From a virus: DNA of 62,954 nucleotides. Made by a program: the position numbers and the translations under genes. Positions 12,397 through 44,100 of this stretch are shown in pieces (the stretch's first letter is position 1; each line of letters begins with the position of its first letter). Below the pieces are notes generated by a model. That model ran no database searches. It was not told where the DNA came from and saw only the letters and a program-made list of their open reading frames with translations. The stretch is taken from the IMG/VR virus record IMGVR_UViG_3300035703_000093, positions 1-62,954 of that record, one strand, 5' to 3'.

Positions 12397-13410
12397 TTAG
12401 GAGGCGAAGGGCAGCGGGGTGAAGGTTTGGAAGCCGGCGGCGCAGGGGTGGCCGCCTCCGCCGGGGGCCATGGCGGCGGCGATTTCGGAGACGTTGACGT
12501 GACCGTGCGGGTGGCCTAACTGGCGGCTGCGGAGGGAATAGACGGCGGCCCCGGTGGTAGGATGGATAAACCAGGAAGCGGCAAAGGGCGTGTCGGGGTA
12601 GGCGCGGAGAAGCTCGGTGCAGGCGTCGGAGATGAGGCCGGTGTCGAGGCCGTTGACGGCGGGGATGCGTTTCAACTTCCAAGTTCCAAGTTCCAAGTTG
12701 GGAAGCTGGGAGAAGTCGAGCCAGTGGCAGGCGTTGACGGCGCTGGCGATGATGCAGCCGTCGGCGACGCGGAGGCGGGCACCGATGGCGATGGCCTCGA
12801 TCAACGATGGGTTGTGATTGAGGGGATTGCCAGACAGCAACTTCCACCAAACACCGAATTCTCGCGGAATGCAGCGGAAGAGGTAGGCGTGAAGATTGAG
12901 CGCCTTGGTGGACAGTGGGTGATCCGGCTGTTGGAAGGCGTGGCCGAGATCCCGCCATTCGATCAAAGAGGTGGCTGGGCTTGTGTCGGCGGTTTGGAAA
13001 AAGTGTTTCCATGTCAACCCTGCGCCGGAATGGATGAAGCTAAAAATGGACTTGAAAGGCGGGATTGATTTTTTGTGTCTAAACAGGGGGGTGTCGCCAG
13101 GAGAGTACCCGTGCAAAGGAGAGGCTTTCTCGTGGTGGTCGATGATGGTGAGGGGGATGATGTTGTCCGGGTAGTCCTCCAGGAAGCGGTCGATGACGTT
13201 TTGCGGGGGCGTGTAGTCGAGGTAGGTGAGGGTGTCGCCGGTGTAGAGCACCTGGTCAGCGCCGAGCGGCATTTGGTCGCGGTCGCCGTAATTGACGGGC
13301 TGCGGGTTGATGTGTTCGAGCGCGACTCCTTGTGAGAGCAAGGCATGGCGGGCGATGCAGGCGGCGGCGAAACCGTCGGCGCAGTTGGCGTGGTAGAGGA
13401 GGTGGTGCAT
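12397..13410 (-). CDS. DHH-family phosphoesterase (oligoribonuclease/NrnB-like)
   Basis: 337 residues. The N-terminal DHH domain shows HANCADGFAAA (metal Asp12) and DHHEKA (91-96). The C-terminal DHHA1 domain ends in GGGGHPCAAGF (residues about 317-327). Such enzymes cleave short oligonucleotides or cyclic dinucleotides using Mn2+. In a phage it may recycle nanoRNA or remove signalling nucleotides; the second would counter CBASS or c-di-NMP signalling. Residues about 236-248 (LPNLELGTWKLKR) come from an in-frame dispersed repeat (12671-12705), yet the frame stays open. Confidence 0.85.
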   Translation of the reverse strand: MHHLLYHANCADGFAAACIARHALLSQGVALEHINPQPVNYGDRDQMPLGADQVLYTGDTLTYLDYTPPQNVIDRFLEDYPDNIIPLTIIDHHEKASPLHGYSPGDTPLFRHKKSIPPFKSIFSFIHSGAGLTWKHFFQTADTSPATSLIEWRDLGHAFQQPDHPLSTKALNLHAYLFRCIPREFGVWWKLLSGNPLNHNPSLIEAIAIGARLRVADGCIIASAVNACHWLDFSQLPNLELGTWKLKRIPAVNGLDTGLISDACTELLRAYPDTPFAASWFIHPTTGAAVYSLRSRQLGHPHGHVNVSEIAAAMAPGGGGHPCAAGFQTFTPLPFAS

Positions 13411-13796: not shown

Positions 13797-13826
13797 GGTT
13801 CTCGGTTCGCTGTTCTCGGTTCTCAG
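13797..13826 (-). repeat. R1 heptamer repeat (GGTTCTC-type units)
   Basis: Four to five units of GGTTCTC / GGTTCGC / TGTTCTC fill the gap between the SSB gene and the gene at 13823. Same family as the long array at 19892-20014 and the in-frame copies in the polyvalent gene. Confidence 0.85.
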
Positions 13827-14500
13827 TTGTTGGCGGATTCGAGGGTTTCGATGCGTTCTTCGAGTTTGAGGAGGTGGTTGCGCAGGCCGGAGAGGATGGT
13901 GGCAAGGTCGTTGTCCTTGAGGGGATCAAGCTGGATGCCGTGCTCGATGACTTTGGCCTGGAGTGCCGCGAGGTCGATGTTGTGCGCGGGCTCGGCGGCG
14001 GGTTTGGCGGGCTTCACCTTGTCGATGCCGAGGATCTTGCGCATGCTGGCGATGTTGCCGGCGGTGATGGTGATGGCTTTCTCGGCGAGGTCTTGCGTGG
14101 CTTTGATGGCTGCGGCGTTGTCGGACTCGGTGGCGACGTAGGCTTCATTATCGGCCTGCTGCATCCAGTATTGCAGGGTTGCCCGTTCGGTGAAGGTGAG
14201 GGCGTTGGTGGTGCGGGTGCGCTTGTTGGCCGGGGGTGGTGGGATGGAAGGAATGTGTAGGGTGAGGGCGACGCTGGCCTCGCGGTCCCAGTGCTTGGAG
14301 AGGGCGCGGTTGAGGTAGTCGTGCTGGGATGGACTGGTGAGGATGTCGTAGCTGTGCGGGGTGGTGACTTCGGCGAGGATGTGGTCGTCGCCGATGTGGG
14401 TGACGAGGATGTCGAGCAGGGCGGCGGAGATGAGGGGGCGCTCGGCGTCGATGAGGGCGGCGAGTTTCGGGAAGGCGGTGGCGAGGGGTGTGGGCTGCAT
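13823..14500 (-). CDS. hypothetical early protein
   Basis: 225 residues from the ATG at 14500. The N-terminal 80 residues resemble a small alpha/beta domain (LLDILVTHIGDDHILAEVTTPHSYDILTSPS). The middle is helical (LTFTERATLQYWMQQADNEAY) and the end is coiled-coil-like (LRNHLLKLEERIETLES). It lies among replication genes, but no homology is recognised. The upstream gap is a GTTGACG-type repeat. Confidence 0.6.
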   Translation of the reverse strand: MQPTPLATAFPKLAALIDAERPLISAALLDILVTHIGDDHILAEVTTPHSYDILTSPSQHDYLNRALSKHWDREASVALTLHIPSIPPPPANKRTRTTNALTFTERATLQYWMQQADNEAYVATESDNAAAIKATQDLAEKAITITAGNIASMRKILGIDKVKPAKPAAEPAHNIDLAALQAKVIEHGIQLDPLKDNDLATILSGLRNHLLKLEERIETLESANN

Positions 14501-15091: not shown

Positions 15092-15136
15092 GAATGAGGA
15101 ATGAGGAATGAGGAATGAGGAATGAGGAATGACGAA
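15092..15136. repeat. R3 repeat run (GAATGAGG / GAATGACGAA units)
   Basis: Five to six tandem copies of an 8-base GAATGAGG unit ending in GAATGACGAA. Further copies of this family lie at 7754-7772, 11093-11115, 13427-13446, 16848-16868, 17504-17532, 28436-28473, 49558-49585, 52144-52181 and 54741-54756, almost all in gaps between genes. Confidence 0.85.
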
Positions 15137-16833: not shown

Positions 16834-16878
16834 GGGTGGTGGAAATGACGAATGCGGAATGCGGAATGTTGGCGTGGG

Positions 16879-17250: not shown

Positions 17251-17253
17251 GGG

Positions 17254-17490
17254 TCAGGCGGGGCGGCGTTTGGCGAGGCGTTTGGTGATGTGGTAGTAGA
17301 GGCGGCGGGCCTCGGCCTCGGTGAGCTTTTTTTCTTGCGCGATGGCGTCCTTGATGCGCACGGCGGGCCAGTCCTGGTCGGCGAGGTAGTCGATGGTGGG
17401 ATCGACGCTGGCGTAGGCGAGTTTGGAGCGGGCCGGGGTGGCGGGCCGGGTCCAGGTGCGGGCTTTGGCGAGGAGGTCGGCGGCGGTCAT
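17254..17490 (-). CDS. small hypothetical protein
   Basis: 78 residues from the ATG at 17490. Basic and helical: YASVDPTIDYLADQDWPAVRIKDAIAQEKKLTEAEARRLYYHITKRLAKRR. Looks like a small DNA-contacting helical domain of the kind common in phage early regions. The 17491-17646 upstream gap holds repeats (R3 and a copy of the 16850-16903 segment) and no convincing gene. Confidence 0.55.
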   Translation of the reverse strand: MTAADLLAKARTWTRPATPARSKLAYASVDPTIDYLADQDWPAVRIKDAIAQEKKLTEAEARRLYYHITKRLAKRRPA

Positions 17491-17646
17491 GGGCGGGGGA
17501 AATGACGAATGCGGAATGCGGAATGCGGAATGTTGGCGTGGTTTACTGTGGCTGAACGGTGGTTTGGGTGCCCCGATACCTGGCGCTAGCTGCCGGGTTT
17601 GCGATTGTGCTCGGGGCCACACACCGGGCCGGTTTGGCGGCGAGGG

Positions 17647-19891: not shown

Positions 19892-20014
19892 TGTTCTCGG
19901 TTCTCGGTTCTCGGTTCTCGGTTCTCTGTTCTCTGTTCTCGGTTCTCGGTTCTCTGTTCTCGGTTCTCTGTTCTCTGTTCTCGGTTCTCTGTTCGCGGTT
20001 CTCTGTTCGCGGTT
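19892..20014. repeat. R1 array, about 17 heptamer units
   Basis: Tandem seven-base units GGTTCTC with variants TGTTCTC and GGTTCGC run for about 120 bases between the antirepressor gene and the next gene. No spacers are present, so it is not a CRISPR. Read in frame on the minus strand, three units (21 bases) encode the heptapeptide ENREQRT or ENREPRT. Other copies: 13797-13826, 25611-25628, 26989-27021, 30295-30329, 36583-36623, 37660-37692, 39732-39763, 42533-42566, 42750-42782, 43581-43620. Confidence 0.9.
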
Positions 20015-20016: not shown

Positions 20017-20784
20017 TCAGGCGGTGAGTTGCAGGATGTTGGTGGCGGTGGAGGTTTGGGCGGGAAGGTTGAGGCGGCGGCGGAGCCATTCGACGCCTTT
20101 GGGGGTGATGCGGGTTTGCGTGAAGGCGTGCTCGTGGGCCTCGCCGGTGCGGACGGTGAAGTAGCCGTCGCGCAGGTGCTCGGCGTAGGGCTGGAGGTGG
20201 CCGCCTTCGCGGAAGCAGAGGCGCTGCTTCTCAAGGCGGGTGGTGAACTGCTTCGGGGGCAGGCCGAGCAGCTTGGCCGTCTCCCGCAGGCCGAAGGTGC
20301 CCTCGGTCTGGACGTAGGACTCGACGAACTCGACGGCGGGGCGCTGGGCCTCGACCTGGAGTTTGAGGGCCTCGGCCTGCTCGCAGGAGTCGGCCAGCAG
20401 GCGGAGGGCCTCGGAGAAGGTCTTTGGCAGGTCGAAGGGCGGCGGGGGAGGGGCTGGGACGACGGTGTAGGTGCCGGTGCGGCGGAGGGTGGGGAGGACT
20501 TCACTGGTCACCCATTTGCGGAAGGTCTGGGCTTCGGGCTTGCGGGACTTGAAGACGAGAGTGTAGAGGCCGGACTCGGTTATGGTGACCACGGTTCTCT
20601 TGCCGTCGGCTGTCTCAGTAATACTTAGACCGCGCTCATCTTCGGCTAGACCTTTCGCGGCTTCGGTTGGGTTGGTAAGGCCTAAAGCGTTACATATATC
20701 GTGCATAACGAACTTGACCTGCCCGTCCTCGATGACGGTGCGGACGTTTTGCGTGCCGAAGGTGAAGGTTTGGAGGGTGGTCAT
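20017..20784 (-). CDS. Bro-N / KilAC phage antirepressor
   Basis: 255 residues from the ATG at 20784; the open frame before it reads through an R2 repeat. Residues 1-110 form a Bro-N domain (FTFGTQNVRTVIEDGQVKFVMHDICNALGLTNPTEAAKGL...RKPEAQTFRKWVTSEVLPTLRRTG). Residues 150-250 look like an antirepressor KilAC domain (LRETAKLLGLPPKQFTTRLEKQRLCFREGG...RITPKGVEWLRRRL). Such proteins bind DNA or the phage repressor to promote the lytic switch. Encoded early in the leftward operon near the repressor-like XRE gene. Confidence 0.85.
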   Translation of the reverse strand: MTTLQTFTFGTQNVRTVIEDGQVKFVMHDICNALGLTNPTEAAKGLAEDERGLSITETADGKRTVVTITESGLYTLVFKSRKPEAQTFRKWVTSEVLPTLRRTGTYTVVPAPPPPPFDLPKTFSEALRLLADSCEQAEALKLQVEAQRPAVEFVESYVQTEGTFGLRETAKLLGLPPKQFTTRLEKQRLCFREGGHLQPYAEHLRDGYFTVRTGEAHEHAFTQTRITPKGVEWLRRRLNLPAQTSTATNILQLTA

Positions 20785-20819
20785 GGTGCGGGTGGGGCTG
20801 GACAGGCTGGCAGCCTGTT

Positions 20820-21377
20820 TCACGCGGGGAGGTAGTGGGTGTCCCAAGGGTTGCCGTCGGCCTCGATGTTCCGCACGAGGCCGCGGTCGGTGAGGGCGTA
20901 GAGGTAATCTTGGACCTCATCGGCGGTGCGGTTGCAGTGCATGGAAACATCGTCCGGGGAGAAGCCGCCGGTGGGCTGCGGGGCGGCGTTTTTGACAAGG
21001 TGGCGCAGGGCGGCGAGAATTGATTCTTCGGCGGGCAAGAGGGCACCGTCCTTCATTTCTGCGCGGGCAGCGGTCATAGCTGCGCGGGCAGCGGTCATAG
21101 CTGCGCGGACGTAAGCGACGTAGGCGGTGAGGGCAGCTTTGGTTTCTGGGAGGTTGGGTTCAGTGAGGTTTGATTCTTCAATGGCGGTGAGACAGTTTTC
21201 CAATGCCTGTGGGTCAGCTTCCTCCAGGACGATAGGCAGCCATGCGGCGACACTGGCCAGCACATGACCAGATCTGTTATTTTTAACGAGGTAAACCGCA
21301 TGCGGCGTGCTTTGCAGGGTGTGTTCAAGGAAGGACGCGTGGTGATAATCTTCGAGGGTGGGAAGTGGGTCTTGCAT
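20820..21377 (-). CDS. hypothetical regulatory protein with possible winged helix
   Basis: 185 residues. The N-terminal region has a HHASFLEHTLQSTPHAVYLVKNNRSGHVLASVAAWLP alpha/beta pattern. The middle carries a duplicated AAMTAAR helix from a 21-base tandem repeat (21061-21111). The end (TGGFSPDDVSMHCNRTADEVQDYLYALTDRGLVR) resembles a winged helix. Upstream of the antirepressor gene; function unknown. Confidence 0.55.
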   Translation of the reverse strand: MQDPLPTLEDYHHASFLEHTLQSTPHAVYLVKNNRSGHVLASVAAWLPIVLEEADPQALENCLTAIEESNLTEPNLPETKAALTAYVAYVRAAMTAARAAMTAARAEMKDGALLPAEESILAALRHLVKNAAPQPTGGFSPDDVSMHCNRTADEVQDYLYALTDRGLVRNIEADGNPWDTHYLPA

Positions 21378-25645: not shown

Positions 25646-26071
25646 ATGAAAGCCCGAGCCGCCATTTGGAAAACACTGGTCGATGAATGCCTGGACAAGG
25701 GGATGTCCCTGCGGGCGACGGCGGCGTTTCTGGCGCTGCCGGTGGGGACGGTGAAGACCTGGAGGCATCGGCAGAGGAAGCAGGCGGACAAGAGTGTCCG
25801 CGTTTCCATGAAACCAGCGATGAAACCGGCTCCTGCGAAGGAGAGGGCCACGGCCATGAAACCAGGCATGAAACCGGGGGTGCATCGCGGGCTGACGGTG
25901 GAGATGATGCCGGGGCGGACGGGGTGGGAGCGGCGGATGACGTGGAGCCTGTTTAGGCGCGGGGAGTGGCCGCCGAAGGAGTGGCGCATTCCGGCGGATT
26001 TGGAAGGCCCGGCGCTGGCGTCGGCGCTGGGGGAGAGGGCGTTCAAGAGCAAACCGAGGGGGGAGGCGTGA
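25646..26071 (+). CDS. HTH protein of unknown role
   Basis: 141 residues. Residues 18-42 (MSLRATAAFLALPVGTVKTWRHRQR) form a helix-turn-helix like sigma-factor region 4 or transposase HTH. A linker from an R6 repeat (ADKSVRVSMKPAMKPA) follows. The C-terminal 60 residues (GRTGWERRMTWSLFRRGEWPPKEWRIPADLEGPALASALGERAFK) are a separate small domain. Probably DNA-binding; target unknown. Overlaps the next gene by GTGA. Confidence 0.55.
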   Translation: MKARAAIWKTLVDECLDKGMSLRATAAFLALPVGTVKTWRHRQRKQADKSVRVSMKPAMKPAPAKERATAMKPGMKPGVHRGLTVEMMPGRTGWERRMTWSLFRRGEWPPKEWRIPADLEGPALASALGERAFKSKPRGEA

Positions 26072-26496
26072 GTTTGGAGTTTCAAGTTTCAAGTTTCACG
26101 TTGGAAGCCGGGCCGGAGAGGCCGGTGGTGCCGGGGTGTGTGGAGATGGCGAAGTTGCCGAAGACGCGGCAGGTGGTGCGGCGGCCGATGACGGCGGACG
26201 AGGCGGAGATGGTGAAGGCCATCCGGCGCTGCGTGACGTTTTCGGTGGGGCACTGGGACAAGAAATTCATGCGGCAACTGCCGGAGGAGATCACGGAAAA
26301 GCAGGCGGTGCAGGTGTGGCGCATTTTCAGAACCTACCGGCGGCAGATCGTGACGAAGGTGCCGGAGGCGGTGATGACGTGGGAGCGGAAGGAGGAGCTG
26401 CTGCGGGCGGCGGAGGTGGTGGTGGAGGCATTTCAAGCAGAGGGACTGGACACCGCGAGAGGTGGGATAACCGCAGAGAAGAAGGAGCCTTTATGA
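26068..26496 (+). CDS. conserved-looking phage protein
   Basis: 142 residues if started at the GTG 26068, which overlaps the previous stop and follows GGGAGG; 116 if started at the ATG 26146. Residues 1-25 after the GTG contain a repeat-derived peptide (LEFQVSSFTLE). The core MTADEAEMVKAIRRCVTFSVGHWDKKFMRQLPEEITEKQAVQVWRIFRTYRRQI is a helical domain I have seen only in phage and mobile-element proteins; function unknown. Coupled to the next gene by ATGA. Confidence 0.6.
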   Translation: MSLEFQVSSFTLEAGPERPVVPGCVEMAKLPKTRQVVRRPMTADEAEMVKAIRRCVTFSVGHWDKKFMRQLPEEITEKQAVQVWRIFRTYRRQIVTKVPEAVMTWERKEELLRAAEVVVEAFQAEGLDTARGGITAEKKEPL

Positions 26497-26831: not shown

Positions 26832-27383
26832 ATGAGTAACCGGATTGACGGGGAATCCCCTGCCCTGCGGCTGTGGCTGCCGGGGTATCATACGCCGTCG
26901 TTGAACCGGACGGCGGGAAAGCACTGGGCGAAGGTGCGGCGGCTGCGGCTGGAAACGGCGGAGGCGCTGTATGAGGCGCTGCGGGGCGGGTTCTCGGTTC
27001 TCGGTTCGCGGTTCGCGGTTGAGGAGGCGCGGAGGGTGTTGTCGAAGATGCTGCTCAAGGTGCCGCTGGAGACGCGGCGGGGCAAGAAGCCGGACAAGCC
27101 CCTGGTGCCGGCGTATCTGCGCATTGAGCGGGTGGCGTGCGTGCTCCTCGATGAGGAAAACTTCAAGGGCGGCACGAAGGGCCTGACGGATCTGCTGCGC
27201 TACGCGTTTCCCACGGTGCTGCTGGACGACGGGCCGGGGTATGTGGTGATGGAGCACGTCCAGACCAAGTGCTCGAAGCGGTGCGAGGAGGGGACGTGGG
27301 TGGAGCTGAGGCTGGGGAAGGCGGAGAACGAAGGGCGGAGGGCGGAGGGGATGTCGGCGGCGGTCATGGGCGGTGGAGGATGA
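26832..27383 (+). CDS. RusA-like Holliday-junction resolvase
   Basis: 183 residues. The N-terminal PGYHTPSLNRTAGKHWAKVRRLR and the central LDEENFKGGTKGLTDLLRYAFPTVLLDDGPGY segment match RusA: the metal-binding acidic cluster (D/E-rich, then K.L.D, then a DD pair). RusA cuts Holliday junctions during phage recombination. Residues 50-62 (RGGFSVLGSRFAVE) come from an in-frame R1 repeat, inserted in a loop. The last 25 residues are low-complexity. Confidence 0.8.
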   Translation: MSNRIDGESPALRLWLPGYHTPSLNRTAGKHWAKVRRLRLETAEALYEALRGGFSVLGSRFAVEEARRVLSKMLLKVPLETRRGKKPDKPLVPAYLRIERVACVLLDEENFKGGTKGLTDLLRYAFPTVLLDDGPGYVVMEHVQTKCSKRCEEGTWVELRLGKAENEGRRAEGMSAAVMGGGG

Positions 27384-29148: not shown

Positions 29149-32100
29149 TCACAGGCTGGCAGCCTGTCTCACGAGGAGAGGGGCGCGTTGTTTGATGCGC
29201 TGGAACTCCTGAAGGGCGTTTTCGAAGGCGGCGCGGGCCTCGCCGGTGAGGGAGGCGCGGAACATGGATTGAGCGTCTTGAGCTGAAATGCCTTTGCGCT
29301 TGATTCCACCGACTACCATCAAAGGATTGCGGTAGAAGAGGAGCTTGTTGATGTCCTGCTCGGTGCGGACGGGGTGGCCCATTTTTTCGAGTGATCCAAG
29401 GATGTTTTTGATCGCTTTAAGGTTTGGTTCGTCCTGCGCGAGCTGGGCAAAGAGGGCCTTGCGGGCGCGGGAGGCGGGCGTTGTTGAGCCGTAGTCCATG
29501 CCTTCCTGCACTTCTCCTCCTTGGGCGATGATCCAATCGTGGGCTTTGCGGTAGAGGTCCGGGGTGGCGTTCTTGACGTTGAGGCCGACGACGGCGCGGG
29601 TGAAGGCCTGGGCGGGGTCGTAGGTTTCGAGGGTCTTGTTCGTGGCGCGGTCGCCGGCACGCATGAGGGTGTTGAAGGCGGTGCCACCGGGGGCGAGGGG
29701 TGGCAGGGCGACGCCGGCGGCGTGCTTGGTGTAGGCTTTGATCTTCTCGAGCGGCGTCATGCCGAACTCGGCGATGGGGCGGCGGGTGAAGGCGTCCTCG
29801 TTGTGCCTCCAGGCATCGACCAGGGAGAGCACGGGGCCGCCGGAGACGATGCCGCGCCAGAAGCGGTTCCACGGGTCCTCGGTGGCATCGGTGACGGCGA
29901 CGCGGGTGCCGAGGAGATCGGCGAAGGGCATGATGGCGGAGATGTCGAACTGCTGGACGGCCCCTTGGGCGCTGCGGAAGGGCAGCAGCATGGAGAACAG
30001 CGGGGTGTCAAAGGCGAAGAGCTTCCCCTTCCCTGCCATGTCTTTCTGGATTTCCTCCATGTCGTCGTCATCGAGGCCGAGCAGCATGGCGGAGATCGCG
30101 GTCACGATGGCCGGGAAGCTGAGGGCTGCGGTGAGGGCGAGCGGGCGCTCGGCGACGGCGGTGCCGAGGATGCGGGTGGACTCGCGGAAGAAGGAGAAGA
30201 ACGGGTTCACGAAGCGGCCGACGGCGCGGGTGGTGCCGGACTGGCCGAGGCGGTCGTAGTAGGGGAACCATTTCCGCACATGTTCCGCTGCGCGGGTTCT
30301 CTGTTCGCTGTTCTCGGTTCCCTGTTCAGCGAGTTCGGCCTTAGCTTTGAAGTAGGCGGCGGCTTTGAAGAGGTCGTCGGGGAGGCGGCGGAGGCTGGCG
30401 AGGAACTCGTGGGAGCCGTGGAGGGTGGCACCAAAGCCGAAGAGCATGCGCTGGACGAGGCCGGGGTCGTAGTCCTCGATGGTCTTGGGGTCGGGCAGGA
30501 GGCCTTTCAGGCGCTCCTTCACGAGGCCGGTGTAGGCGTCGCCACCGATGACCTGCTGTTCGATGAGTTCGGCGAAGTCTTTGCCCCCGGTGCGGAGGGC
30601 GGCGATGGCCTGCTGGTAGTAGGGCCAGTTGCCGGGGTTCCAGAGGCTGTTGCCGGCGAGGGTGGCGAACATGGTGTTGCCGACGGCGTCGCGGATGTGG
30701 GAGCCGGGGTTCCAGACGAGTTTCCCAGCCTTCCACTTGCGCAGGATGGCGTCGTAGAACTGGAGCGCGGCGTTTGGCACATCGACGAGGTCGAGGATCT
30801 GCGCGGCGATGTCCTTGCGGACGTGCTTGCCGGCGAGAGGGCCGAAGCGGGAGGCGTCGGGAATGGCGGTGAAGCCGTTGAGGGCGATGTCGCTCACCCA
30901 TTCGGGGTGCTGGGCGGTTTTGCGCAGCAGCTCCATGGTGGCGGCGTTGTGGGTCTGGCCGAGGACGTAGCGGGCAACGGCATAGACGGGGTCCTTCACG
31001 AGTTTGGCGGGCTCGAAGGGGTCCTTCGGCAGGAAGCGGTCGTATTGGTGCTTCTTGGCCTGCTTCACGATGCCGGCGAGCATGGGGGAGAGCTTCGCGG
31101 TGTTGGCGATCTGGTCCACGGTGAGGGACTTGATCTGGTCGCGCATCGAGGCGCGTTCGGAGCGCGAGAGCGGGGCGAGCATGTCGGCCACGGTCTTGTC
31201 GCCACGGTCCTGGAGCATGTTCAGCGTCTGCTGGCGCACGAAGTCGTGGTAGAAGGCGTCGCGGGAGGCGGCGTCGCGGAAGCGCCAGCGGTTGCGTTTG
31301 CCGCCCTCGTCGCGGGAGACAGTCACATACTGGCCGGTCTTGTCCTTCCGGGTGGTATCGACGATGTGGTAGGCGGTGGAGCGCTGCTGGAGGAGATCGC
31401 GCACGCCGAGCTTGAACGCGGCGAGGAAGGAGCCGGCGGACTCGCGGGCCTCGTCCTCGGTGTAACGGGGCATCCAGCCGTTCGACTGGAGTTCCTCGAA
31501 GGTGTCCGGGTTCATGAGGCCCTGGCGCACGAGTTCGGAGCCGGTCTGGCGGAGGAGATCGCGCAGGCGCTCCCCGAGGCGCTGCATTTCCGGCGGCAGT
31601 GTGGCCATGGGGACGCGGCCCTCCATGGCATCGAAGAGCTGGGCGCGGGCGGCGGGGTTCTCGGCGAACTCCTTCGGGTAGGCGAGATCGGAGAGGCGGG
31701 GATTGCCGGAGAGGGCGCGGATGAGGTCGTTCGCCGTCTCCTGGCCGTGGGCGGATTTGCGCTGCATCTCGTGGTGCAGGGCGAGCCATTCACGGGGCAG
31801 GAGGGCGGTGGGGAGGACTTGATCGACGAGGCCTTTGATGGACGGGGCGAGGCCGTCCGGCTTGTCGAGCCAGGTTTCGACGGCAGCTTTGGCGCTGCGG
31901 AGCTTGGGGCCGGCGAGCTTGTCGAGCTGGGCGGCGAGGCGTTTGTCGAGGTTGTTCGAGCCGAAGGTGGCGAGGGGTTGCTGGATGCCGAGGGCGTCGG
32001 CAAGGTAGCCGTTCACGCGCAAGGGCACGAGAGGTGCCTGGACGAGGCCTTTGATGACCTTTGAGGCCAGTGCGCCCGTGAGATCGACGGCTTTGCCGGC

Positions 32101-35100
32101 GAGGTCGAGGGACTGGGCGGCACCGGGGACGGTGAGGAGTTTGCGGTCGAGGGCGACGGCTGTTTCGGCGATTTCGCGAGCGTTGGGAGTGGCGGCTCCG
32201 ATGGCGGTGCCGATTGTGCCGCCGATGGCTGCACCGGGGGCTCCTGCGACCAAAGCGCCTGCGCCTGCGCCGATGCCGCCCCCGATGAGGGCACCGCTGG
32301 TGGTGTTTTTGAGGCGGTTGGAGGCGTAGAGAACGCCTGTCAGTCCGTCGGGCAGGCCTTCTCGGCTTCCAATCTGAGAAAGTAAACCCTCAGATTCGCC
32401 TCTTTGAAATGTTTCAAGCGCGGATGCCGTGACGATTGCTCTTTGAAGCGTTGCCAGTCCAATTCCAGATGTGTCGGGATGGGCGTCAAGGACCGCACGC
32501 TCGATTTGCTGCTGCCCCACGGGCTGTCCGGTGCTGTCGATGAACTCGTCACGAGTGAAATCGTAGCGCCAGTTCCGGGCTTCCGCAACCGCCTTGAAAG
32601 CGTTGTCCATCTCCTTGGTCAAAAGCGCGGCGGTGTTGATGGCGGCATTTTTCCCCCACGGCACCTTCTGGCGGTCGTGAGGTTTGAGGTGCTTGGTGGT
32701 GCCGTGGCGCAACGCACTGCTGGCAAAATTCGACGTGCGGCGGATGGCGTTGATGCTGGTAAGCCCGCCCGGATCGTCTTTGATGCGTTTGCCGTTGTTG
32801 TGAATCCAATCCAGCGCTGCCTGGTAAATTTGCGCTCCTCCCCCGCCTTTTTTGCCTTTGGATTCGGCCGCAGTGCTGCGGATGTAGGGGCGGTCAGTGT
32901 CGGCATCATGGATGTCCAAGTAGCCGTTTTTGCCGTGAAAACGCACGGTGTCACCCTGACTCGCGGCCGTGACGAGCTTGCCTGGAATCGACACCGCCTC
33001 AGCGATTTTGCTGGCGCTGGCGTTGCTGGTGCGTCCGTATTGGAATGCCTCATCATGGGCCGCCAGAGCACGCCAGACCTTGGCGACAAACGTGCGGGCC
33101 GGAGCGCGGGCTTCTTCGTCACGCTGATCCAGAATGTCCTGCCACCAAGACGCCGTGCCCATCGGCTGGGCGGGCGTGTTGGGTGGGAACCACTGCGGCA
33201 GCCAGCGGCGGTTGAGTGCGTCCATGTCCTCCTGCTGCTGGCTGGCCTCTTGCTGGAGAAATTCCAGCGCCAGTCGGGATGACTGCTTTTCCATGCGCTC
33301 CTGAACCACCTCGGAAGAATAGATGTCAACATCCGCCCCCAATTTGATCAGCTTGAGGCGTTTTTCCAAGTGTTCACCCCAGCCATTGATCTCGTTGGGT
33401 GTTACGAAAGACAGTAGCTCTAGCGCCCTGTTGAGATACTTTTGGAACTGCTCATCAAGCAGTGTTTGCGGGTAGATGTTTGAGGCGGCTCCTTGGTCAA
33501 TGAGGGCGGCACGGGCGGCTTTTCTTGAATCTAAAACTTCAGCGGCTTTGTTAGCCGTTGGGTGGATGCCATATGAAAGAAGCGACTCATTCGCCAGCCG
33601 CTTCAACTGGTTGTTTTTGTCGATCTTGCTGCGGATTTCCTGAAGTGCTGGCGTTCCGTTGAGGAACCATTGTTGATCCTGCGGTAAATCGTCATGCGTG
33701 CCGCCGTTCCTCTGGAGTTTTTCCAAAAATGTCCGCATGGCAGGCAGCGCCTCCTGCTGGAGCTTGGCACGGCGCTGTTTTTCAGCATCTTGTTCAGCTT
33801 GGAGACTGGCTTGTTTCGCCTGAGCGTCGGACAATGCCGACTCGTTTTTCTTGATGCGCGTCTCGATCTGCCAGCGGGCCGCTTGGCCGGTGTCTCCCAC
33901 GGTTTCACCGCCGCCGTCATACCTGGACCCCAGCACGGGCACGGTGCGGTTTTCGGTGGCAGAACCGATCTGGAAACCCACGATCTCCACCTTGTCACCT
34001 GCGGCTTTTCGCAGATCCTTGATCATGTCCGCCATGTAGCCGGAGCGCGTGTCCGGGCCGTCGCTGAAGTCGATGCCTGGCAGGTTTTCCACCGCCAAAC
34101 CCGTCGCCACATGGCCGGGCTGCTGCGGCTGGGCCAGGAACCGCAGGAGTCCAAGTTCCTCATAGTCGTCATTTTGCGGCGGGCGTGGTGGCAGAGCGCG
34201 GGCGCGGCGACTCCAGAAGTTCAGCAGAGCGGTGCGGGGGTTGGTGTAATTGCTGCTGGTTTGCCGCTCTCCAGCGGAGTTCTCGACCCGAAACTCACCG
34301 CGCTCTGTGCGGCCCATTTTGAAACCTTCGGGTAGATCTGGAAGTTTTTGGTAGGTTACAACAAATTCAGCCGCATTCATCTTGATCCGGTCACCGGCCT
34401 TATTGACCACAATGACCGCATTGATAGGCTCGTTGTGGTTGAGGTAATAGCCGGTGCGACTATGGGGTAGCGAGCGAGTGAGAGCCGCCTTATCGGCAGC
34501 AATGGACTCAATCAGTCCTGACACCTTGCGCTGAACAGAACTGATTTCATCCCGCTGGCTCTGGGATGTGAAGGGGTTTGTCATTGACCACCAATCGGCA
34601 ATTTTGGCAGCCGCGTCAGAATCCAATTGCGGAAGCGCTTCAGTTGGTTTATTATTCCCCGTCGCAGCGACAACATCCTCTGCCAGGGAGGATTCTCCGC
34701 TCCCCTCAATCTGGTTTGGGGAGCGGCCCCGTTGAAGCAATGACATGGGCTGGTTCGCCAACTCACTCTGCGACATCTCCCCGCCCTGGGAAACTGGGGC
34801 GGGGTTTTTTGTGCGTCCGGCGCTGGCAAGCAAAACCGGCTTGTCGTGGGGGCTGGTGGGTTGGGGCAGCGTCTTGGCGAGTTTTTCGATCTGCTCCTTG
34901 GTGACGGGCTGGGTGGTGTCGTGGGTGGTGAGCCAGTGTTTGAAGACGGGGATCGTGGTGGGGATGGCGCTTTGCAGGCCTTTCCAGCCTTTGGTGTAGC
35001 TGGCCATGTAGCCGCGGGCGGCTTCGGCGGGGGTGTTGAAGCCGAGCATGACCTTGTGCTCGTCGAAGTGGCCGTTGCCGGGTTTGCGCTGGTTCACGAT

Positions 35101-38100
35101 CAGCACAAGCTGGGAGTCGGGGTTCGGGCCGAGGAAGAAGTCGAGGTGGCCTTTGTCGCGGCCCACGGTGCCGAGGATGCGGCCGTAGTGATGCGGCAGG
35201 GTGACGGACCAGGGCTTGCCGGTGGCGTCGGTGCCGCTGCGGGTGCTGCCGGCGGGGTTTTCGATGCTGAGGCGCAGGCCGTGGACGTCCACCTTGCCGG
35301 TTTTGTAGTTCTCGGCGTCCTTCTGGGGCTGGGTGGGGTTGGTGTTTGTCGCTGCTGCCGCAGCGGCCACTTGCGTGGCGAGATCGGAGCGGACAGGAGT
35401 GTCCGCGCCCCCTTGGCGGTCGGAGGCGGCGAGAGGGGAGCGCTCGGTGGCGAGGCGTTCAAAGGTGGCGCGGAGGGCTCCGGTGGGGTGGAGGATGATG
35501 TTGTCGAAGACGCGGAGGAATGTGCCGTTGTCCTGGGTGATGGCGTTTTCGGTGTGGAGGTCGAGGACGGCGAGGTTGTCTGCCGGGCGGTAGTAGGCGG
35601 AGGGGGGATCAAGTTGGATGAAGCCTGCGGCTTCCATGGCGGGCTTGATGGCGGTTTCCTGCGCGGCGTATGCGCCCTGGTAGTGCGGCTGGGAGGTGAT
35701 GAGGGCGACGTTGCCGACGCGATCCGCCCAGACGGCGTGGAGGACGATGTCGTCGTGGAAGATGCTGTTGTGGAGCAGCAGCTTTTCGAGGTAGGAGGCG
35801 GCGTCCGCGCCTTCGCGGGCGATGTCCCATTCATCACGGTAGTCGCGGGGCTGGTAGCCGTAGGAGGTGCCGTCTCCACGGGTGATTTTCACCCAGCGGC
35901 CTTCCTGGTCGCGGAAAACGTGGTGTTCAGAGCCGCCTTTGTCGAGGGGACCGTCGAGGTCGTAGCGGGAGGGTGGGTCTGTGATGAGGATGCCGGCGGC
36001 GCGTGCCCAGTCGGTCAGGAGGGCTTTGTCGCGGCGGCGGTCTGCTGCTCTTCGAGCTGCCGCATCCGGCGCAGATGATCCGCCTGTGCGTTGGCTTCGG
36101 CGGAGGTGTGAGAGGAGAGCCGGGAGTTGAGCGCGGCTGCTTCCTGCCTGGTCGGCAGGCGGGGTTTCGGCGATGGGGCGGCGTTTTCCATGGAGGTAGG
36201 CATCTATCGCATGAATGCGGGTTTCTTCCAGTGCTTTAGCTTCGGGCGTGGAGAAAGGTGGCTCGGTGATGCGGGCGCTGGAGGCGAGGGGGACCATCAT
36301 ATCGGTGGACATGATGCCGGAGGCGTTGCGGAGTTTGAAGGGGCCGGCGGCGGCGACGGTGGCGGCGGACTCGGGCGGGGAGAGGAGGACGGCGCCGGTG
36401 TCGTCGCCTTCCTTCACGCCGCGCATGAAGGCGGCGGGGGTGACGGCGGGGTTTTGGGCGTGGAACTGGTTCCACACGGCGCGGATGGGGAGCCACTGCG
36501 AGGACTGGCCGCGCAAGGCGGACTGGTAGGCGCGGGAGATGAGGACCGGGGTGACGGGAATGAGGGCGGTGAGGCCCTGGCCGGTTTGCGGTTCGCGGTT
36601 CGCGGTTCTCTGTTCGCGGTTGCGGAAGAACGCGGCGCTGGAGCCGAGGGTGGTGGGCGTGAGAGCGCGGTCGAGCGGGAAGCGCTGGGAGGCGAAGAGG
36701 GCCTGGCCGGCGAGGGCGGAGTCGCGCATCTGGTGGGTGATGCGGATGAGGTGGATGGGGGTTTCGGAAGCAGGGAGACTTGAAGACGGGGAGACAGGCG
36801 GAGTGGTGGGGTTGTCGAGTTCTTCCTGGAGGCGAATCTGAGCGCGTTGTTGAGACGGGTATTGACCGAAGACGCCGTTGGGGAATTCAATGCCCCACGT
36901 TCCGGGCTGCATTTGGACAACGCCAATTGGGGGGCCTTGGGGCTGGGAGTCGGAGGTGGCACGCTGTTTTGCGGTGATGCTGCTGCTTTCCACGGTGCCG
37001 CCCCAGGGTTTGACGTATTTGGCGAACTCTTTGACGAGGATGTCGTCGTAGAATTTGCGCATGCCCTGGCCGCCGACGCGGAGGTCGAGGCCGGTGTAGT
37101 TTACGACGCGAGAGGGTGAGGCGAATCGGAGGTCGCTGACGATGCGTTCGGCGAGTTCTTTGCCAACGATTTCCGGCAGTTCCTCGGCGGTGAAGGCTTC
37201 CTTGGGCAGCCGCACTTCGTGGTCGTTTTTATCGAGGACGGCGATCTCGTAGCGTGTCTGGTCGAACTTCTTGGCGTCGATGCGTTTGACCTGCTTGCTG
37301 AGGTCGTAGCGGTCGGCCTGGGTGTCGCCGGTGGTCCAGCCGATCCACTGCTTGCCGGACTGGACGGCATCGAGCAGGGCGCGTTTGAAGAGCATCAGGG
37401 GCCAGGAGGCGCGGTAGGGGGCGTCGGGGACTTTGGCTGCTTCTTCGGGCGATGCGGGCACGGTGCCGCCAAACACACCGGGGACCGTCTGCATGGTGTC
37501 CCGGTAACCCTTGTCCCGGCCCATCTGGTGCCATTTGGACTGGAATTCTTCGACGAGGAGGCCGTTGCCGGCGGCATTGGTGCGGTCGGTGGTGCGATAC
37601 CAGGCGAGTGCGTCGAGATCGCCGTAGTGGGTGCGGTCGGTGTCGAGGTTGGGGGAGTTGGTTCTCGGTTCGCTGTTCTCGGTTCGCGGTTGGTTCCAGG
37701 TGATGACGACTTCCTGGGGATTGGTACCGCCGGGGAGGGTCAACTGGGTGTTGCGGGTGGTGGACTGCATGCCGCCGGGGTTCACGCGGTTGTAGCCGTC
37801 GTTCATGTCGGCAACGGTTTCCTGGGCGGAGGCTTCGGTGGGCTCCCAAATGACGAATTCGCCGGCGGGATTGATGACGTCGAAGCCTTGGCCGTTGCGC
37901 TCCGGGCGCAGGGTGGGGCGATAGGTGAAGCGGTCGCTCAGGTTGCCGAAGCGGGTGACGGTGAACTTCACGCTGCCTTCGGTGGCGAGGTAGGCGAGGA
38001 CCTGGTCCTGGGTGATGGGGCCGTCCTGGGCCTGGGACTGGAGCCACTGGCGGATGCCGGTCCATTTCATCTCCTCTTCTTTGAGTCCGGCGTTTTTGAG

Positions 38101-41100
38101 GATGCCGAGGATATGCTCGGGGGTGGCGCGGGCGGGCATCTTGGCGCGGACGGCTTCCGCAAGGGCGGAGTAGAAGCCGGGCTCGACGTATTCGACGCGG
38201 CGGTTGGAGGCGCTTAGGCTGACGTCATTGACGTCGTTGTCCTCATTGACGGATGGGGAGCTGAAGCGGTCGGCGTCTTCTTGGAGCTGGGCTTCGAGGT
38301 CGGCGAGATCGATCTCGGGGGAGGTTTCGAGCGGGTCGTCGCCGGGGCGGCGGTCGGCGTCGAGTTCGGCGGCGACGCGGGCGCTGGTTACGCGGTCCCA
38401 GCCGGGGCCGCCGGCGAGGGTGGCGTCGAGGGCGGGGGTGTATAGGCCGGATTGAGGATCACGCTTTCCAGTTTGGCGCGGTTCTCCGGCAGGTAGTCCG
38501 CGTTGATTTTGCGCAGCTCCTCCAGACTGAGTTTGGAGAGGTCCGTCACTGTCTCCGAGGGGGATGCCGCCGGGGCCGTAGGTGCGGACGGGGGCGGAGG
38601 GGAGACGGAGGTCTGCGACGGCGGCGGGAGAGAGGGCAATGAATTCATGGCTCGGTTTCTTGGGACTACCACGGAAGGTTCGGAGGACGGTCCAACCAGC
38701 CTTTTCAAGCTGATCGACGACGCGACCGTTGAAATTGTTGGTCACCACATACCGCACATCGCTCCCCTTGGGAAGCAGATACTTTTCGAACTTCTGGAAC
38801 CAGAGGGCGGGGTTGGCATCGCCGAGGGTGGTGTTGCCGTAGTTCATGACGGCCGCGCCGGCGGCGGTCTGCTCGTCGGTGGGGAAGTAGGAGGTATCGA
38901 CGAAGACGAGGGCACCGGCGGGGGCATCGGCGGCGAGCTGCCAGCCGTCGCCCTGGCGGATGGTGGCCTCGGTGAAGCGGCGGGAGGCGTCGCGAATGAG
39001 AGCTGGCATGTCCGCACTCCAGACGCGGGAGGGGCGGTTGTGCTTCATCGAGTTCGAGGGGTTGTCCCAGTAGATGAAGGCGAAGTCGTCCTTGCCGTTG
39101 AGTTTGCCGCCGGTGAACGTGCGCGGTTTGCCCTCGGCATCGAGGTCGAAATCCACGACGCGGTTTTCCGCCATGTTGTTCTGGAGGAAGAGGTAGAGGG
39201 CTGCGGTGCGCGGGGTGTCGGGCAGCGGGAAGCGGCCCATGGCGTCACGGGCCTGCGTGGGGAGGTAGTCCTCCAGCGTCTGGTTGATCCAGGCGTGGAT
39301 ATTCCGGCGCTTCTCCATGGTGGCCTCGTAGGTGGGCTGGATATCGGTGATGGGGAAGGCGGTGTCGAAGGCAGAGCGCAGGCTGATGAGTTCGCGCACG
39401 ACGGCGGCGGGGGCGTCCTTGATCTGGCGGTTGGTGATGCTGCGGGAGTATTCCCATTCGTTCCAGGTGGAGCCGGCGGGGAGGTTGCCCTGCTGGGCGA
39501 GGAAGTGGGTGTAGATGGCGGCTCCGCCGAAGGCATCGAGCACGACGGTGGCGGGCTCGACGAGGGAGAGGTAGAAGGTGCCGTGGCGGCCGAGGAGGTC
39601 GCCTTTGTTGCCGCTGATGAGGTAGGGGGCGATGGCTTTGATGGCGTTCGCCGTCATCGGTGAGCCTTCGGGGACGGGGAGGGTTTCGAGGCGGTAGTCG
39701 TCGAAGGAGGTGCCCCAGAAGTCGGCCTGTTTGTTCTCGGTTCCTGGTTCGCTGTTCTCGGTTGAAACAGGGCGGACAGGAGTGTCCGCGCTCCCTTGAG
39801 GAACAGCGACGGGGAAGCTCATGTCATCTTCGTCGAGGGCGGCTTGGCGGCGGGCGATGTCCGGGGGCATCTCACCGAAGCGGCGTTCGATATGGGGCGC
39901 GTAGGGGCGGAGGGCCTGCTGGGCGGCCTCGGGGGTGATCTCGGGGAGGTCACGCTCGGCCATGACGGTGTTCCAGGCGCTGCGGAGGTGCGGGTGCTTG
40001 AGCGCGTGGAAGGCGTCGGCGGGGAGGCGTTTGACGAGGTGGGCGAGGAGCTGCGGGAAGGCGGTGATGCCGTGGCGCTCGACCGCGCCATCGACGAGGC
40101 GGGAGGCGGCGTCACGGAGGCGGGGGGAGGCGGCGAGCAATCCTGCCTCCTGGAGGGCGGCGATGACTTCGGCGTCGTCAGCGGCGTCCAAGGCATCGCG
40201 GGCAGGATTGCCCGCGCTATTGTTGAGGCGCAGGTGGTTGGGGCCGGCGGTGAGGTTGAGGGTCTGGCCGGGCTGGGGGGTGACGGAGCCGAAGCGGTCG
40301 CTGTCGAGGGTGAGGGGGTCGGTGTCCTGGACGGTGAACCATTCGGAGCCGATCTGGATCTCGTCCTCGGGCTCGAGTTCGCGGGCGAGTTCCTCGGTGG
40401 TGAAGGGCTGGCCAGTGGCTCCGGCGGCGTAGGCGGCGAAGTCCTGGGCGCTGGCGAGGGCTTCTGCGGCATCGCGGGCTTCGATGTCCTGCACGCTGTC
40501 TGTGTTCTTGGCGGCCATGCGGGCATCGAGGGCATCGAGGATGGCAAGGCCGAGTTCCTGGCCGGAAGAAACGGACCACGGGCGGGCGATGCGGGTGTCC
40601 TGCTCGGTGGTTTGCTCGGTGTCAGAAAGCTGACCGGCGGCTTCGTCGATGCTGGATGGCTCGGAAAGGTTAACGATGCCTTCCTGAAGCAGCCAGGCGC
40701 GTTTGCGGGCGGGGTCGCTCACATCCCCCTTCCGTGCAGCGGTCTGCGCTTCACGTTTGCTTTGAGTTGGGCCGTTTTCGGCGTCGCGGGTGAGGTCGCG
40801 CCACCAGTCCCAGTTGGAGCTTTCATTTGGGCCGCCGATGCCGCCAAAGCGCTCCTTGAGTTCGGAGATGATGTCTCCTCCCACGGGTGGTGGCAGGGCT
40901 TTGGATTTCGACTCCGGCATTTTGGCCCAGGAGCGAAAACTGACGGGGCGGAAGATGGAGAATGACGAGGCTTTGGGCGCTTCCTCGACAAGGTGGTCAT
41001 GGTAGGCTTTGAGCTTTTCCTCGATTTCGGCGGAGGTGAGCGTGGTGTGCTCCATGAGCCTGGCGATGAGCGCGAGTCCACGCTGCTGCGCTTTTTGCTT

Positions 41101-44100
41101 CTCCGCCTTGGTCGCAGTGTCGGACTCCATGATTTTCGCATCGAGCTTGAACTGGAAGGCGGCGAGGGAGTCGGCGTCGGGGAAGGAGGCTTCCCGGCTG
41201 GTGCCTTTCTTGGCGAGGGGGATTTTGAAATCGAGTTTTACCTTTTGCGGAGGTGTGTCCCGAGTTTGCACCACGGGCATTCCGTCGGATCGCATTCCTT
41301 GCGGCCATGCAGCCACATTGTCAGTTCCCGTGGGCACTCCGGCGGGGTTTCCGCCTGCATTCTCTGGCGAAAGGCCCGAGCCTGTTGCAGCGTCTGCTGA
41401 ACCGATACCGGGCAGTCCGGCTTGAGAGGCGGGCGCTGGTAAAGCGGTGCTGGCAGATGCGCTATCACGGTTTGAACTCTTAGTAGCAGGCCGGCCGATG
41501 CGCAAGATTTCTTCTGTTCCGGCGTTATTGGTAGAGGGGCTGGTGTTTCCTCCACCAAGAATGGGTTGTTCTCCTCCAGCCATTTTTCGTGAGTCATTTC
41601 GTGAGTCATTGTTTTTATTGGGTAGATTATTTTGGGAAACTGGGGATTCGGCTACGGCAGGCGCAGGCGTGGTGGTGGCGGGCTGGGGGCGGCGGCTGAT
41701 GCGCAGGAGGCGCTCGGCTTCGCTGTGGGGGATGGTTGCGGCGACGTGGGGGTAGGTGAGGGCGAGGTCGTCAAGGGCCTGCTGGCGGATGACGACGCGG
41801 TCGTTGCGCACGTAGGCGGCTCCGGCGGGATCTTCGGCGGTCTGCCATTTGGCGGGCTGGGACTGGACGTAGGCGAGGTCGTCGAGCGCGAGCTGGTGCT
41901 CCAGGCTGCCGGCGAGGGTGAACTCGACGGCGAGGAGGGCGGACTTGAGGCGGGAGAGGGTGTAGATGCGGGCTCCGCCTTCGTCGATGGCGGACTGATC
42001 CACGCCGAGGCCGAGGGCGGCGAGCATGCGCTGCTCGCTGATGCCGATGGTGCGCCAGTCGGCGGCACGGCGGCGCTGGCCGATCTTGCCGGTGCCGAGG
42101 AGCATGAGGAGGGCGGCCTTGGTGGCGTCCTGGCGTCCGGCCTGGCGGGCGAGTTCGAGTTCGCGGGCGGCGTTGTCCTCCAGGAAGAAGCGGGCGCGGT
42201 TCTGGGCCACGACCACGGCGCGGGCGGCGGCGGCACGCTCCTGCTCCTCCAGGCGGTATTTGGCGGTGACGAGGTTGTCGAGCTTGTTGGCCTTGGCGAA
42301 GTCCTCGATCTCGGCGTCGCGGGCGGCGAGCGCTTCCTCAACCTGGGCCATGCGGGCGGTGCGCTGCCGGGCCTGTTGCACCATGGCCTCGACGGCGGCC
42401 TCGTTGATGAAGGCGGGCTTGATCTGGCCGGGGCGCGGGGCCTCGGTGATCTGCAACTTTGGCAGGGTGACGGGCGGCCTATCTTTGACAAGCTCGGAAG
42501 GTAGAGAAGCAAACGCGGCGAGGCGTTTGTTGGTGTTCTCGGTTCGCTGTTCGCTGTTCGCGGTTGTCGGAGGCAGGGACTGGACGAAGCGGGCTCCGGC
42601 GAGGTCGGCGGCGGCTTTAAGCAGGCCGACGTGGAGGGTGGCGAGGGCGGTTTTGGCGGCGTCCGGCTGGGCGGAGAGCAGGCGCTGGAGGTCGGTGCGC
42701 TGGTCCGGGGCCGTGCGGGAGACGAGGCTGGAGACGAGGCGGGTGAGGAGGTTCGCTGTTCGCTGTTGGCTGTTCGCGGTTGGGGCGCGGGGGGCGGAAG
42801 GAAGCGGGCCGCCGGAGGCACGCGAGGGGTTAAAAGAGTTGACTTCGGGCGGAGTGGCTTCACCCTTCGTCGGCGATTGCTGCTGTGCATCTTCAATGGT
42901 GCCAACCGGACCCCTGCCTAGCACGTCCGATTGATTCCGAGCTTCATCTATATCCGGGTTCCCGGTGCGAATAGCACGAGCAGCAATCGCCTTTTCTGTT
43001 TTTGGATCGTTTTCGGCAAGCCACTCAACAGCCTCTATCAGTCCAATAGTGATTTGCACAAAATCTAAGGCGTCATCAACCATCACATAGTGGTCAACTG
43101 GCCTCAGAACTTTTGCGTGATCTCGAACGGAAACTTCCAAATTGCCGCCACGACCAAGGATATACCAAGAACCATGAAATGTTGCTCCAGAATTGCGGTA
43201 GCCAAAAGACAACAGCTTGTCAGATAATTCTCTTTTTAACCTGAATCCAAGCTGGCGAATTTCTTCATCTACCTCGGCTTCTGTCAGGCCAAAACCTGAC
43301 TCAACGGCATCTTTGCGATACTCTCGGCGAATTTCTGCCGACTCATTTTCAAATTCGCTGCGAAAATCATCAATGGCATCAAGGGCTTGCTTGCTTGCCT
43401 CCGCCTCAGTCAGACCGCCCGGCGAAGGCTCATTGTTTTGGGCGGCCCCGGAGTCGGATGCCATGGGGGAATCTGCGCGGTCGGCGCTGCCAAGCAAGGT
43501 GTTTTGGACTTGCCGGCGGGTGAGGTCGCTGGCGGCCATGTCGGCGAGGAGGTGACGCATCAGGGCGTCCTTGGGGGCTTTGTTCCCGGTTCGCTGTTCT
43601 CGGTTCGCGGTTCGCGGTTGGGCGGAGCGCCAGCTTTGGAAGGCGAGGGACTGGAGGGCGGGGGTGAGCAGGTCGAAGAGGCGGGCGAGTGGCTCAGGGG
43701 CGAGGGCGGGGTCGGTCTTGGCGAGGTGCTCGAAGAGCACGCCGGTGCGCATGGCCTGGACGGCGATGGAGCCGGGATCGCGCAGGATGACGGGACGGGC
43801 GGCGGCGTCGGGGTTGGCTGCGGCGGCTGAATCCACCTGCGCGAGGTGGGCGTCGATGGCCTGGGCCATCTGGTCGAGCTGCTGCTTGAACTCGGGCTGC
43901 ATGCGGCCGGCGATCTGGCGCACGAGATCGGCGAGGGCGGCGAGCATGTCCCGCAGCCAGCCGATGAGGCCGGCGGGTGGGTCCACGGCCTCGGTGACGG
44001 CTCCCTGGCGGAAGACGCTCTGGAAATACATGCGCTCATACTCGCGCATGAGGTGGTAGGCCTGGGCGTCAGAGAGCGCGGTCTTCGGCAGGGTGGCGTC

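What the first reader, a model, noticed from the sequence alone, without database searches (positions are those of the whole stretch)
19892..20014. R1 heptamer repeat: intergenic array and in-frame heptapeptides
A seven-base unit (GGTTCTC and variants) forms an array here and at least ten other copies. In coding DNA, three units make 21 bases, hence seven codons, so the copies read as ENREQRT/ENREPRT without breaking the frame. Six or more copies lie inside the polyvalent gene and one inside the RusA-like gene. The bias to in-frame, linker-like positions suggests repeated insertion with selection, by an unknown mechanism.
Basis: seen in the sequence. Interest (0 to 1): 0.7.

Follow-up and report, generated by a model that had tools for sequence, protein, structure and literature searches.

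The report
Heptamer repeats that fill protein linkers
A Verrucomicrobia phage and its relatives carry short tandem arrays of 7-base units that have been inserted again and again into the same tolerant gaps between genes and between protein domains, with a different 7-base unit in each lineage; bacterial genes such as UvrA show the same thing, and what drives it is not known.

Summary
The array is real: 17 units of GGTTCTC/TGTTCGC at 19892-20010, nine shorter arrays of the same unit family, and several arrays of other heptamers. Seven is the only clearly over-represented non-codon period in the window. The "in-frame" bias is arithmetic: 7 and 3 share no factor, so any stop-free heptamer array reads as the same heptapeptide in all three frames. 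The arrays are insertions. Syntenic phages lack them or hold a different unit in the same slot: 6 of 9 mappable arrays coincide with an array of another unit in relative G004 (0.4 expected; 0 of 5000 random trials). One linker of the giant protein holds three different heptamers, a palindrome, or nothing in five phages. Bacteria do the same: one UvrA slot in 63 Verrucomicrobiaceae genomes holds at least eight heptamer types or a bare linker (at least 11 changes on the tree). The window's unit mosaic is frequent only in two Prosthecobacter-like genomes. Best explanation: fast-turnover heptamer repeats, copied between loci (probably template switching plus slippage), kept where harmless. No reverse transcriptase was found in the phages or two array-rich genomes. 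Abundant bacterial heptamer repeats are known; lineage-specific units turning over in fixed slots I did not find described.

The parts
19892..20014 (+). Main array: 17 units [GT]GTTC[TG]C plus partial GGTT, filling the gap between the antirepressor gene (20017-20847, -) and the start codon of a small ORF (ATG at 19887, -)
   Evidence: flanking gene. G004 has about 2.5 degenerate GTTTCAG units at this place (read by eye)
13797..13828 (+). GGTTCTC array just upstream of the SSB start codon; G004 has GCTGGAT and G466 GAAGGAT in the same slot
   Evidence: SSB
26989..27020 (+). GGTTCTC array inside plus-strand ORF 26832-27383 (read GGFSVLGSRFAV); G004 has AGTTTCA, 32 nt, same place
30295..30327 (+). 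Array in polyvalent gene (residue about 6239, ENSEQRT on the minus strand); other heptamers in G001 and G004, palindrome in G003, empty in G005
36582..36621 (+). Array in polyvalent gene (residue about 4141); CCAGCAA in G004, octamer GGGGAGAC in G001
37660..37691 (+). Array in polyvalent gene (residue about 3784, RTENSEPRT); no array in G001
39736..39763 (+). Degenerate array in polyvalent gene (residue about 3093, STENSEPGTEN) next to palindrome 39772
42534..42568 (+). Array in polyvalent gene (residue about 2159); no array in G001 or G002
42750..42781 (+). Array in polyvalent gene (residue about 2082)
43581..43619 (+). Array in polyvalent gene (residue about 1808); AAGAACC-type array at the same place in G004
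47968..47997 (+). GAAACTT-type array in polyvalent gene (residue 349); the possible in-frame TGA is TTA
17501..17532 (+). [quoted passage not shown] GCTGGAT in G004 and G466, octamer-like GGGGAGAC in G003
16844..16868 (+). GAATGCG array upstream of the replication initiator gene (15676-16833, -)
   Evidence: gene
15092..15136 (+). GAATGAG array, 6.4 nearly perfect units, outside called genes; unit contains TGA on the + strand
12670..12699 (+). GTTCCAA array; absent at the same place in G004
26070..26102 (+). AGTTTCA array
29149..49038 (-). Giant polyvalent gene (6629 aa; InPase, LPD37, Kinase-PolyVal domains) holding eight of the arrays in linkers

Best explanation
The arrays are short, fast-turnover tandem repeats of 7-base (sometimes 8-base) units that enter host and phage genomes as insertions and survive in permissive slots: gaps just upstream of start codons and loops between protein domains. 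Shown here: they are insertions; slots are shared between relatives while the unit differs; one unit family dominates each phage and the window's one matches a dialect of two Prosthecobacter-like genomes; a string with two variant units is shared by three loci of one phage, so arrays are copied between loci. Inferred: new arrays arise by replication-associated template switching from an existing array (fold-back would give the inverted array pairs seen in UvrA) and then grow or shrink by slippage. In coding DNA, selection need only remove in-frame stops and net frameshifts, because a heptamer array gives one heptapeptide whatever the frame. I do not think the phage uses the arrays for anything specific.
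For: Different unit in the same slot: 6 of 9 mappable arrays against 0.45 by chance, aligned. Empty and occupied homologues of the polyvalent protein. Shared variant string CCAGCATCCAGGATCAAGCATC at three G004 loci, one of them kept at the orthologous place in G466. Host turnover: array in G412 absent in G413 between flanks 91-96% identical; UvrA slot with at least eight unit types and at least 11 changes on the tree. Dialect: the window's two-variant mosaic in many copies only in G410 and G016 of 384 genomes. Inverted pairs folding as hairpins. Stop removal.
Against: The copying mechanism was not observed; no donor-recipient pair with diagnostic breakpoints was found. Near-identical phages showed no array differences. 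The excess of period 7 (and 8) over other periods is not explained by template switching as such. A dialect match between prophage relative G239 and its host was not found. The host of the window phage is not identified.
Confidence: 0.55

Rival explanations
1. In-place polymerase slippage only: local 7-mers are duplicated and expanded where they stand, with 7 favoured by the length of primer-template held by the polymerase (the published suggestion for bacterial heptamer repeats).
For: Explains the period and copy-number differences (orthologous host arrays L242 and L244 differ in length); suggested in the literature. Compound arrays keep the 7-base phase while the unit changes.
Against: Does not explain one unit family at ten dispersed places, the variant string shared by three loci, the near absence of the reversed control pattern, or whole arrays in slots whose relatives have a bare linker.
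Confidence: 0.13
2. A REP- or RPE-like mobile element: the arrays are arms or remnants of hairpin elements moved by a transposase, as Rickettsia palindromic elements enter proteins in frame (recalled from knowledge, not tested).
For: Inverted array pairs fold into hairpins in several UvrA slots; short palindromes GCGGGCA..TGCCCGC occupy the same slots in other species (polyvalent slot of G003; ClpB slot in L306 and L315).
Against: The window's arrays are single-arm and do not fold into a long hairpin; units differ freely, so there is no conserved end for an enzyme; no transposase was sought or seen near.
Confidence: 0.14
3. Templated synthesis by a telomerase-like reverse transcriptase (like DRT10) that adds 7-nt repeats at breaks.
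For: DRT10 makes tandem-repeat cDNA from a short RNA template with system-specific repeat (PMC12632851); unit dialect per lineage; window arrays mostly share one boundary, CAACC on the minus strand.
Against: No PF00078 match in any phage record or in array-rich genomes G412 and G024; compound arrays of several heptamers in one place; insertion of such cDNA into genomes is not described in the passages read.
Confidence: 0.06
4. Functional cis-elements: regulatory or protein-binding repeats, such as translational control upstream of start codons (as proposed for TAACTGA) or iterons of the replication initiator.
For: Intergenic arrays sit directly upstream of start codons (19892, 13797, 17501); TAACTGA repeats do the same; a replication initiator gene is near.
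Against: Unit and even period differ at the same place in relatives; about half of the arrays are inside coding sequence.
Confidence: 0.08
5. Ancestral functional linker peptides.
For: The ClpB linker keeps its length and some residues of an ENREPRT-like peptide across many species.
Against: Empty sites and unrelated peptides at the same positions in close relatives.
Confidence: 0.04

Closest known systems
Heptanucleotide long simple sequence repeats in bacteria (2007 survey cited in PMC4692102 and PMC4679880)
   Same: 7-base period over-represented; arrays of a few to tens of units; length varies between relatives
   Different: Here the unit is shared by dispersed loci, differs between relatives at one slot, and sits inside conserved coding regions; slippage in place does not explain this
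TAACTGA direct repeats of Beggiatoaceae, cyanobacteria and Bacteroidetes (PMC4679880)
   Same: One heptamer dispersed over a genome, often directly upstream of start codons, patchy distribution among phyla, no mechanism evident
   Different: Different units; a large share inside genes; turnover of units at orthologous slots shown here
GGGAATC heptamer repeats of Xanthomonas and Nostoc (PMC4692102)
   Same: Dispersed heptamers, most often about four units, variable between close species, sometimes as inverted pairs
   Different: G-quadruplex type unit described as intergenic; the window's units are not G-tract repeats
Rickettsia palindromic elements (from knowledge, not tested)
   Same: Small repeats inserted in frame into many proteins at tolerant places
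   Different: Those are conserved palindromes; here unit sequence is free and only the period is kept
DRT10 telomerase-like antiviral reverse transcriptases (PMC12632851)
   Same: Produce tandem repeats of a short unit with system-specific sequence
   Different: No reverse transcriptase found in the phages or in two array-rich hosts; no genomic insertion described in the passages read

Membership tests
Bacterial heptameric long simple sequence repeats | Tandem arrays with period 7 over-represented against other periods | tested here: met
   Window: 18 arrays of period 7 against 0-1 for non-codon controls; host G412: 6 against 0 for periods 4-6 and 8-11
Bacterial heptameric long simple sequence repeats | Copy number varies between close relatives | tested here: met
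   Orthologous host arrays L242 and L244 differ in length
TAACTGA-type dispersed heptamers | Unit TAACTGA | tested here: not met
   Units found: GGTTCTC, GAATGAG, GAATGCG, GTTCCAA, AGTTTCA, AGTTCTC
TAACTGA-type dispersed heptamers | Mainly directly upstream of start codons | tested here: inconclusive
   True of the arrays at 19892, 13797 and 17501; eight others are inside the polyvalent gene
DRT10-like reverse transcriptase products | Reverse transcriptase in the genome | tested here: not met
   No PF00078 match in the phage records, nor in G412 and G024
REP/RPE-like palindromic mobile elements | Palindromic element able to fold as a hairpin | tested here: inconclusive
   Not the window's main array; met by several UvrA slots of hosts
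REP/RPE-like palindromic mobile elements | Associated transposase | not tested
   No search for REP-associated transposases was made

The most novel reading that the evidence does not exclude
A dedicated, still unknown activity in these bacteria, acting on their phages too, generates or copies 7-8-nt-periodic arrays in a lineage-specific sequence dialect and keeps re-inserting them into a fixed set of permissive slots, so that conserved proteins continually gain new heptapeptide loops: a small mobile-DNA class defined by its period, not by its sequence.
Probability: 0.22. Interest if true: 0.85.

Novelty: new variant of a known kind. Interest (0 to 1): 0.62.

Why it matters
Heptamer repeats have long been known to be over-abundant in bacteria without an accepted explanation. 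The slot comparisons make the question testable: there are paired empty and occupied sites in UvrA and in phage genes, a unit dialect per lineage, inverted pairs that hint at fold-back copying, and a period (7, then 8) that any mechanism must reproduce. They also show how conserved proteins such as UvrA gain new peptide loops, and why a heptamer suits this (frame-independent reading). For annotators, peptides such as ENREPRTENREQRT, LKLETSNLKPETSN and PASSIQHPASSIQ should be treated as repeat-derived, not as homology.

Tried and rejected
Phage GenBank collection: no relative by protein with the C-terminal polyvalent piece. Paper search for the exact unit or peptides: nothing relevant. A search for relatives with minus-strand ORF 26433-27473 found none; the gene there is on the plus strand. 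Reverse transcriptase as the cause: no match. Phage-host unit match for prophage relative G239: no support. Near-identical phage pairs (G004/G006 99.7%, G004/G012 99.8% over 13 kb, G001/G002 100% over 7.3 kb): no array difference noticed in the shared part. Iterons: considered because a replication initiator gene is near, rejected because units change between relatives. Assembly artefact: rejected because slots recur in independent assemblies and most arrays are about 30 nt.

Full report
WHAT IS THERE. The stretch 19892-20014 is a tandem array of 17 units of the form [GT]GTTC[TG]C, ending in a partial unit GGTT. It fills the gap between the end of an antirepressor gene (20017-20847, minus strand, BRO-N and ANT domains) and the start codon of a small minus-strand ORF at 19887. 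The pattern GGTTCTCGGTTCTC with up to two mismatches occurs 36 times in the window against 0.5 expected. Nine further arrays, mostly of four to five units, use the same family of units, all in the same orientation. Other heptamers are present too: GAATGAG, GAATGCG, GTTCCAA, AGTTTCA, AGTTCTC. With one scoring rule for all periods, the window has 18 arrays of period 7 and none or one of periods 4, 5, 8, 10, 11 and 13. The window is a phage: portal, terminase, antirepressor, replication initiator, SSB and a 6629-residue polyvalent protein were recognised.

THE FRAME ARGUMENT. Seven and three share no factor, so a stop-free heptamer array gives the same heptapeptide, rotated, in all three frames. 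Only two things matter in coding DNA: no stop, and a net length that is a multiple of three. Of all cyclic heptamers 69% are stop-free on a given strand, and 85% of those with at least four G or C. Selection shows where the unit does contain a stop: pure GAAACTT arrays would give TGA once every three units, and in all four coding cases (two in G001, one in G005, one in the window at residue 349) the in-frame TGA is TCA or TTA.

INSERTED, NOT ANCESTRAL. Related phage contigs were found through the polyvalent protein, the portal and two other genes, and the fuller ones were read in stretches. Each carries its own heptamer in the polyvalent gene: GCGAACC/GAGAACA in the window, CCAGCAT in G004 (IMGVR_UViG_3300046011_010468), GAAACTT in G001 and G005, none in G003. 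At polyvalent residue 6239 the window reads AEQGTENSEQRTRAAEH, G001 KNLKPETSNLELQSRAAAEV, G004 SENPASSIQDQASMAAGH; G005 is about ten residues shorter, and G003 holds a GCGGGCAGGAGTGCCCGC palindrome. At residue 4141 the window has GCGAACC, G004 CCAGCAA and G001 an octamer GGGGAGAC. Upstream of SSB, between similar flanks, the window has GGTTCTC, G004 GCTGGAT and G466 GAAGGAT. Inside ORF 26832-27383 the window has GGTTCTC and G004 AGTTTCA, 32 nt each at the same position.

SLOT TEST. Mapping the window onto G004 by chained alignments, nine arrays have an image and six of them coincide with a G004 array; random placement gives 0.45 on average and never more than 4 in 5000 trials. Other pairs give 2 of 5 (G001) and 2 of 4 (G466), both above chance. 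The random placements were not restricted to intergenic gaps and linkers, so part of this excess is simply that only such places tolerate an insertion; I regard the slots as permissive sites, not as proof of site-specific insertion.

COPYING BETWEEN LOCI. In G004 three separate arrays share CCAGCATCCAGGATCAAGCATC, that is, two consecutive variant units in the same order. One of the three is also present at the orthologous place in G466. Independent slippage would hardly give this. In the window most arrays begin, on the minus strand, with CAACC followed by GCG-type units, which also points to a common source, though more weakly.

HOSTS. GGTTCTC arrays occur in many phyla (the scan stopped at its limit). 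In the family of G016 (Prosthecobacter sp. VE4 by its record) 25 of 68 genomes have them against 1 of 68 for the reversed control pattern. The window's own two-variant mosaic was found in 5 of 384 genomes of the class, with many copies in only two, G410 and G016, as short three-to-five-unit arrays like those in the phage. I infer a Prosthecobacter-like host; portal relatives at 37-41% identity sit in three genomes of the class, but the host itself was not identified. In 395 kb of G412, stretches partly chosen to include known arrays, there are six period-7 arrays and none at periods 4-6 or 8-11, some of them compound, with blocks of different heptamers in phase.

HOST GENES SHOW THE SAME THING. 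G016 has STDNREQRTANT in the ClpB linker and G410 has PKTANSEPRT in UvrA. Across 63 UvrA sequences of the family, the loop after the UvrA interaction domain is short in 33, filled by other sequence in 16 and by heptamer arrays in 14, with at least eight unit types (GAACCGA, AAATCTC, AATCATC, AATCAGG, CTGAATA, CAAGCCT, AGTTTCA, AATCCGC; assigned by eye from period-7 matches). On the tree, heptamer presence needs at least 11 changes; G423 and G433 carry AGTTTCA arrays inside a clade of otherwise bare linkers. Intergenic turnover is equally recent: an array of about 200 nt in G412 is absent from G413, where the flanks are 91-96% identical. Several UvrA slots hold the array twice in opposite orientation and fold into hairpins (z -3.6 to -6.2).

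MECHANISM. Shown: insertion, turnover, copying between loci, lineage dialect, filtering against stops. Inferred: the copying step is template switching during replication, with fold-back explaining inverted pairs and slippage explaining length changes. Against in-place slippage alone stand the shared unit and the shared variants. Against a reverse transcriptase stands the absence of RVT_1 in the phages and in two array-rich genomes, which may be incomplete assemblies. A transposase-driven hairpin element remains possible; its enzyme was not sought. Why the period is 7, then 8, remains open; the suggestion in the literature is the length of DNA in contact with the polymerase.

KNOWN OR NEW. Heptamer repeats as such are known (2007 survey cited in PMC4692102 and PMC4679880; TAACTGA in Beggiatoaceae; GGGAATC in Xanthomonas). 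I found no description of orthologous slots refilled with different heptamers, in phages or in conserved proteins, in the papers that could be searched; most subscription literature is missing from that library. I therefore call it a new variant of a known kind.

Noticed in passing
25784, 35389, 39772, 40198: Short palindromes GCGGRCA..TGYCCGC, also dispersed in relatives (five in G003, one of them in the polyvalent slot that holds a heptamer array in the window) and in the ClpB slot of two host genomes: a second kind of small repeat using the same slots.
   Followed up: partly
G001, G003, G004, G005, G466 (lag-8 arrays): Octamer arrays GGGGAGAC/TGGGAGAC occur in relatives, sometimes in slots that hold heptamers elsewhere; none in the window.
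   Followed up: partly
L352, L379, L377, L338 (UvrA slots of hosts); phage G005 near 28135-28203: Heptamer arrays in inverted pairs that fold into hairpins.
   Followed up: partly
L209:8273-8446, L239:3575-3817, L240:2052-2269: Host intergenic arrays made of blocks of several different heptamers, largely joined in phase, as if the period were kept while the unit changed.
   Followed up: no
4001-62954: Uniform G over C skew on the + strand regardless of gene direction in most of the window; all G/T-rich array strands agree with it. Unidirectional replication is a possible cause.
   Followed up: no
1 and 62954: Synteny with G004 continues across the window ends (W 62952 then 1 against G004 11903 then 12556), so the record may be a complete, circularly permuted genome.
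   Followed up: no
window 561-1516; phage G012 (L178) about 15100-17350: G012 and G004 are 99.8% identical over 13 kb, then diverge in the segment matching window 561-1516: a sharply bounded replaced stretch.
   Followed up: no
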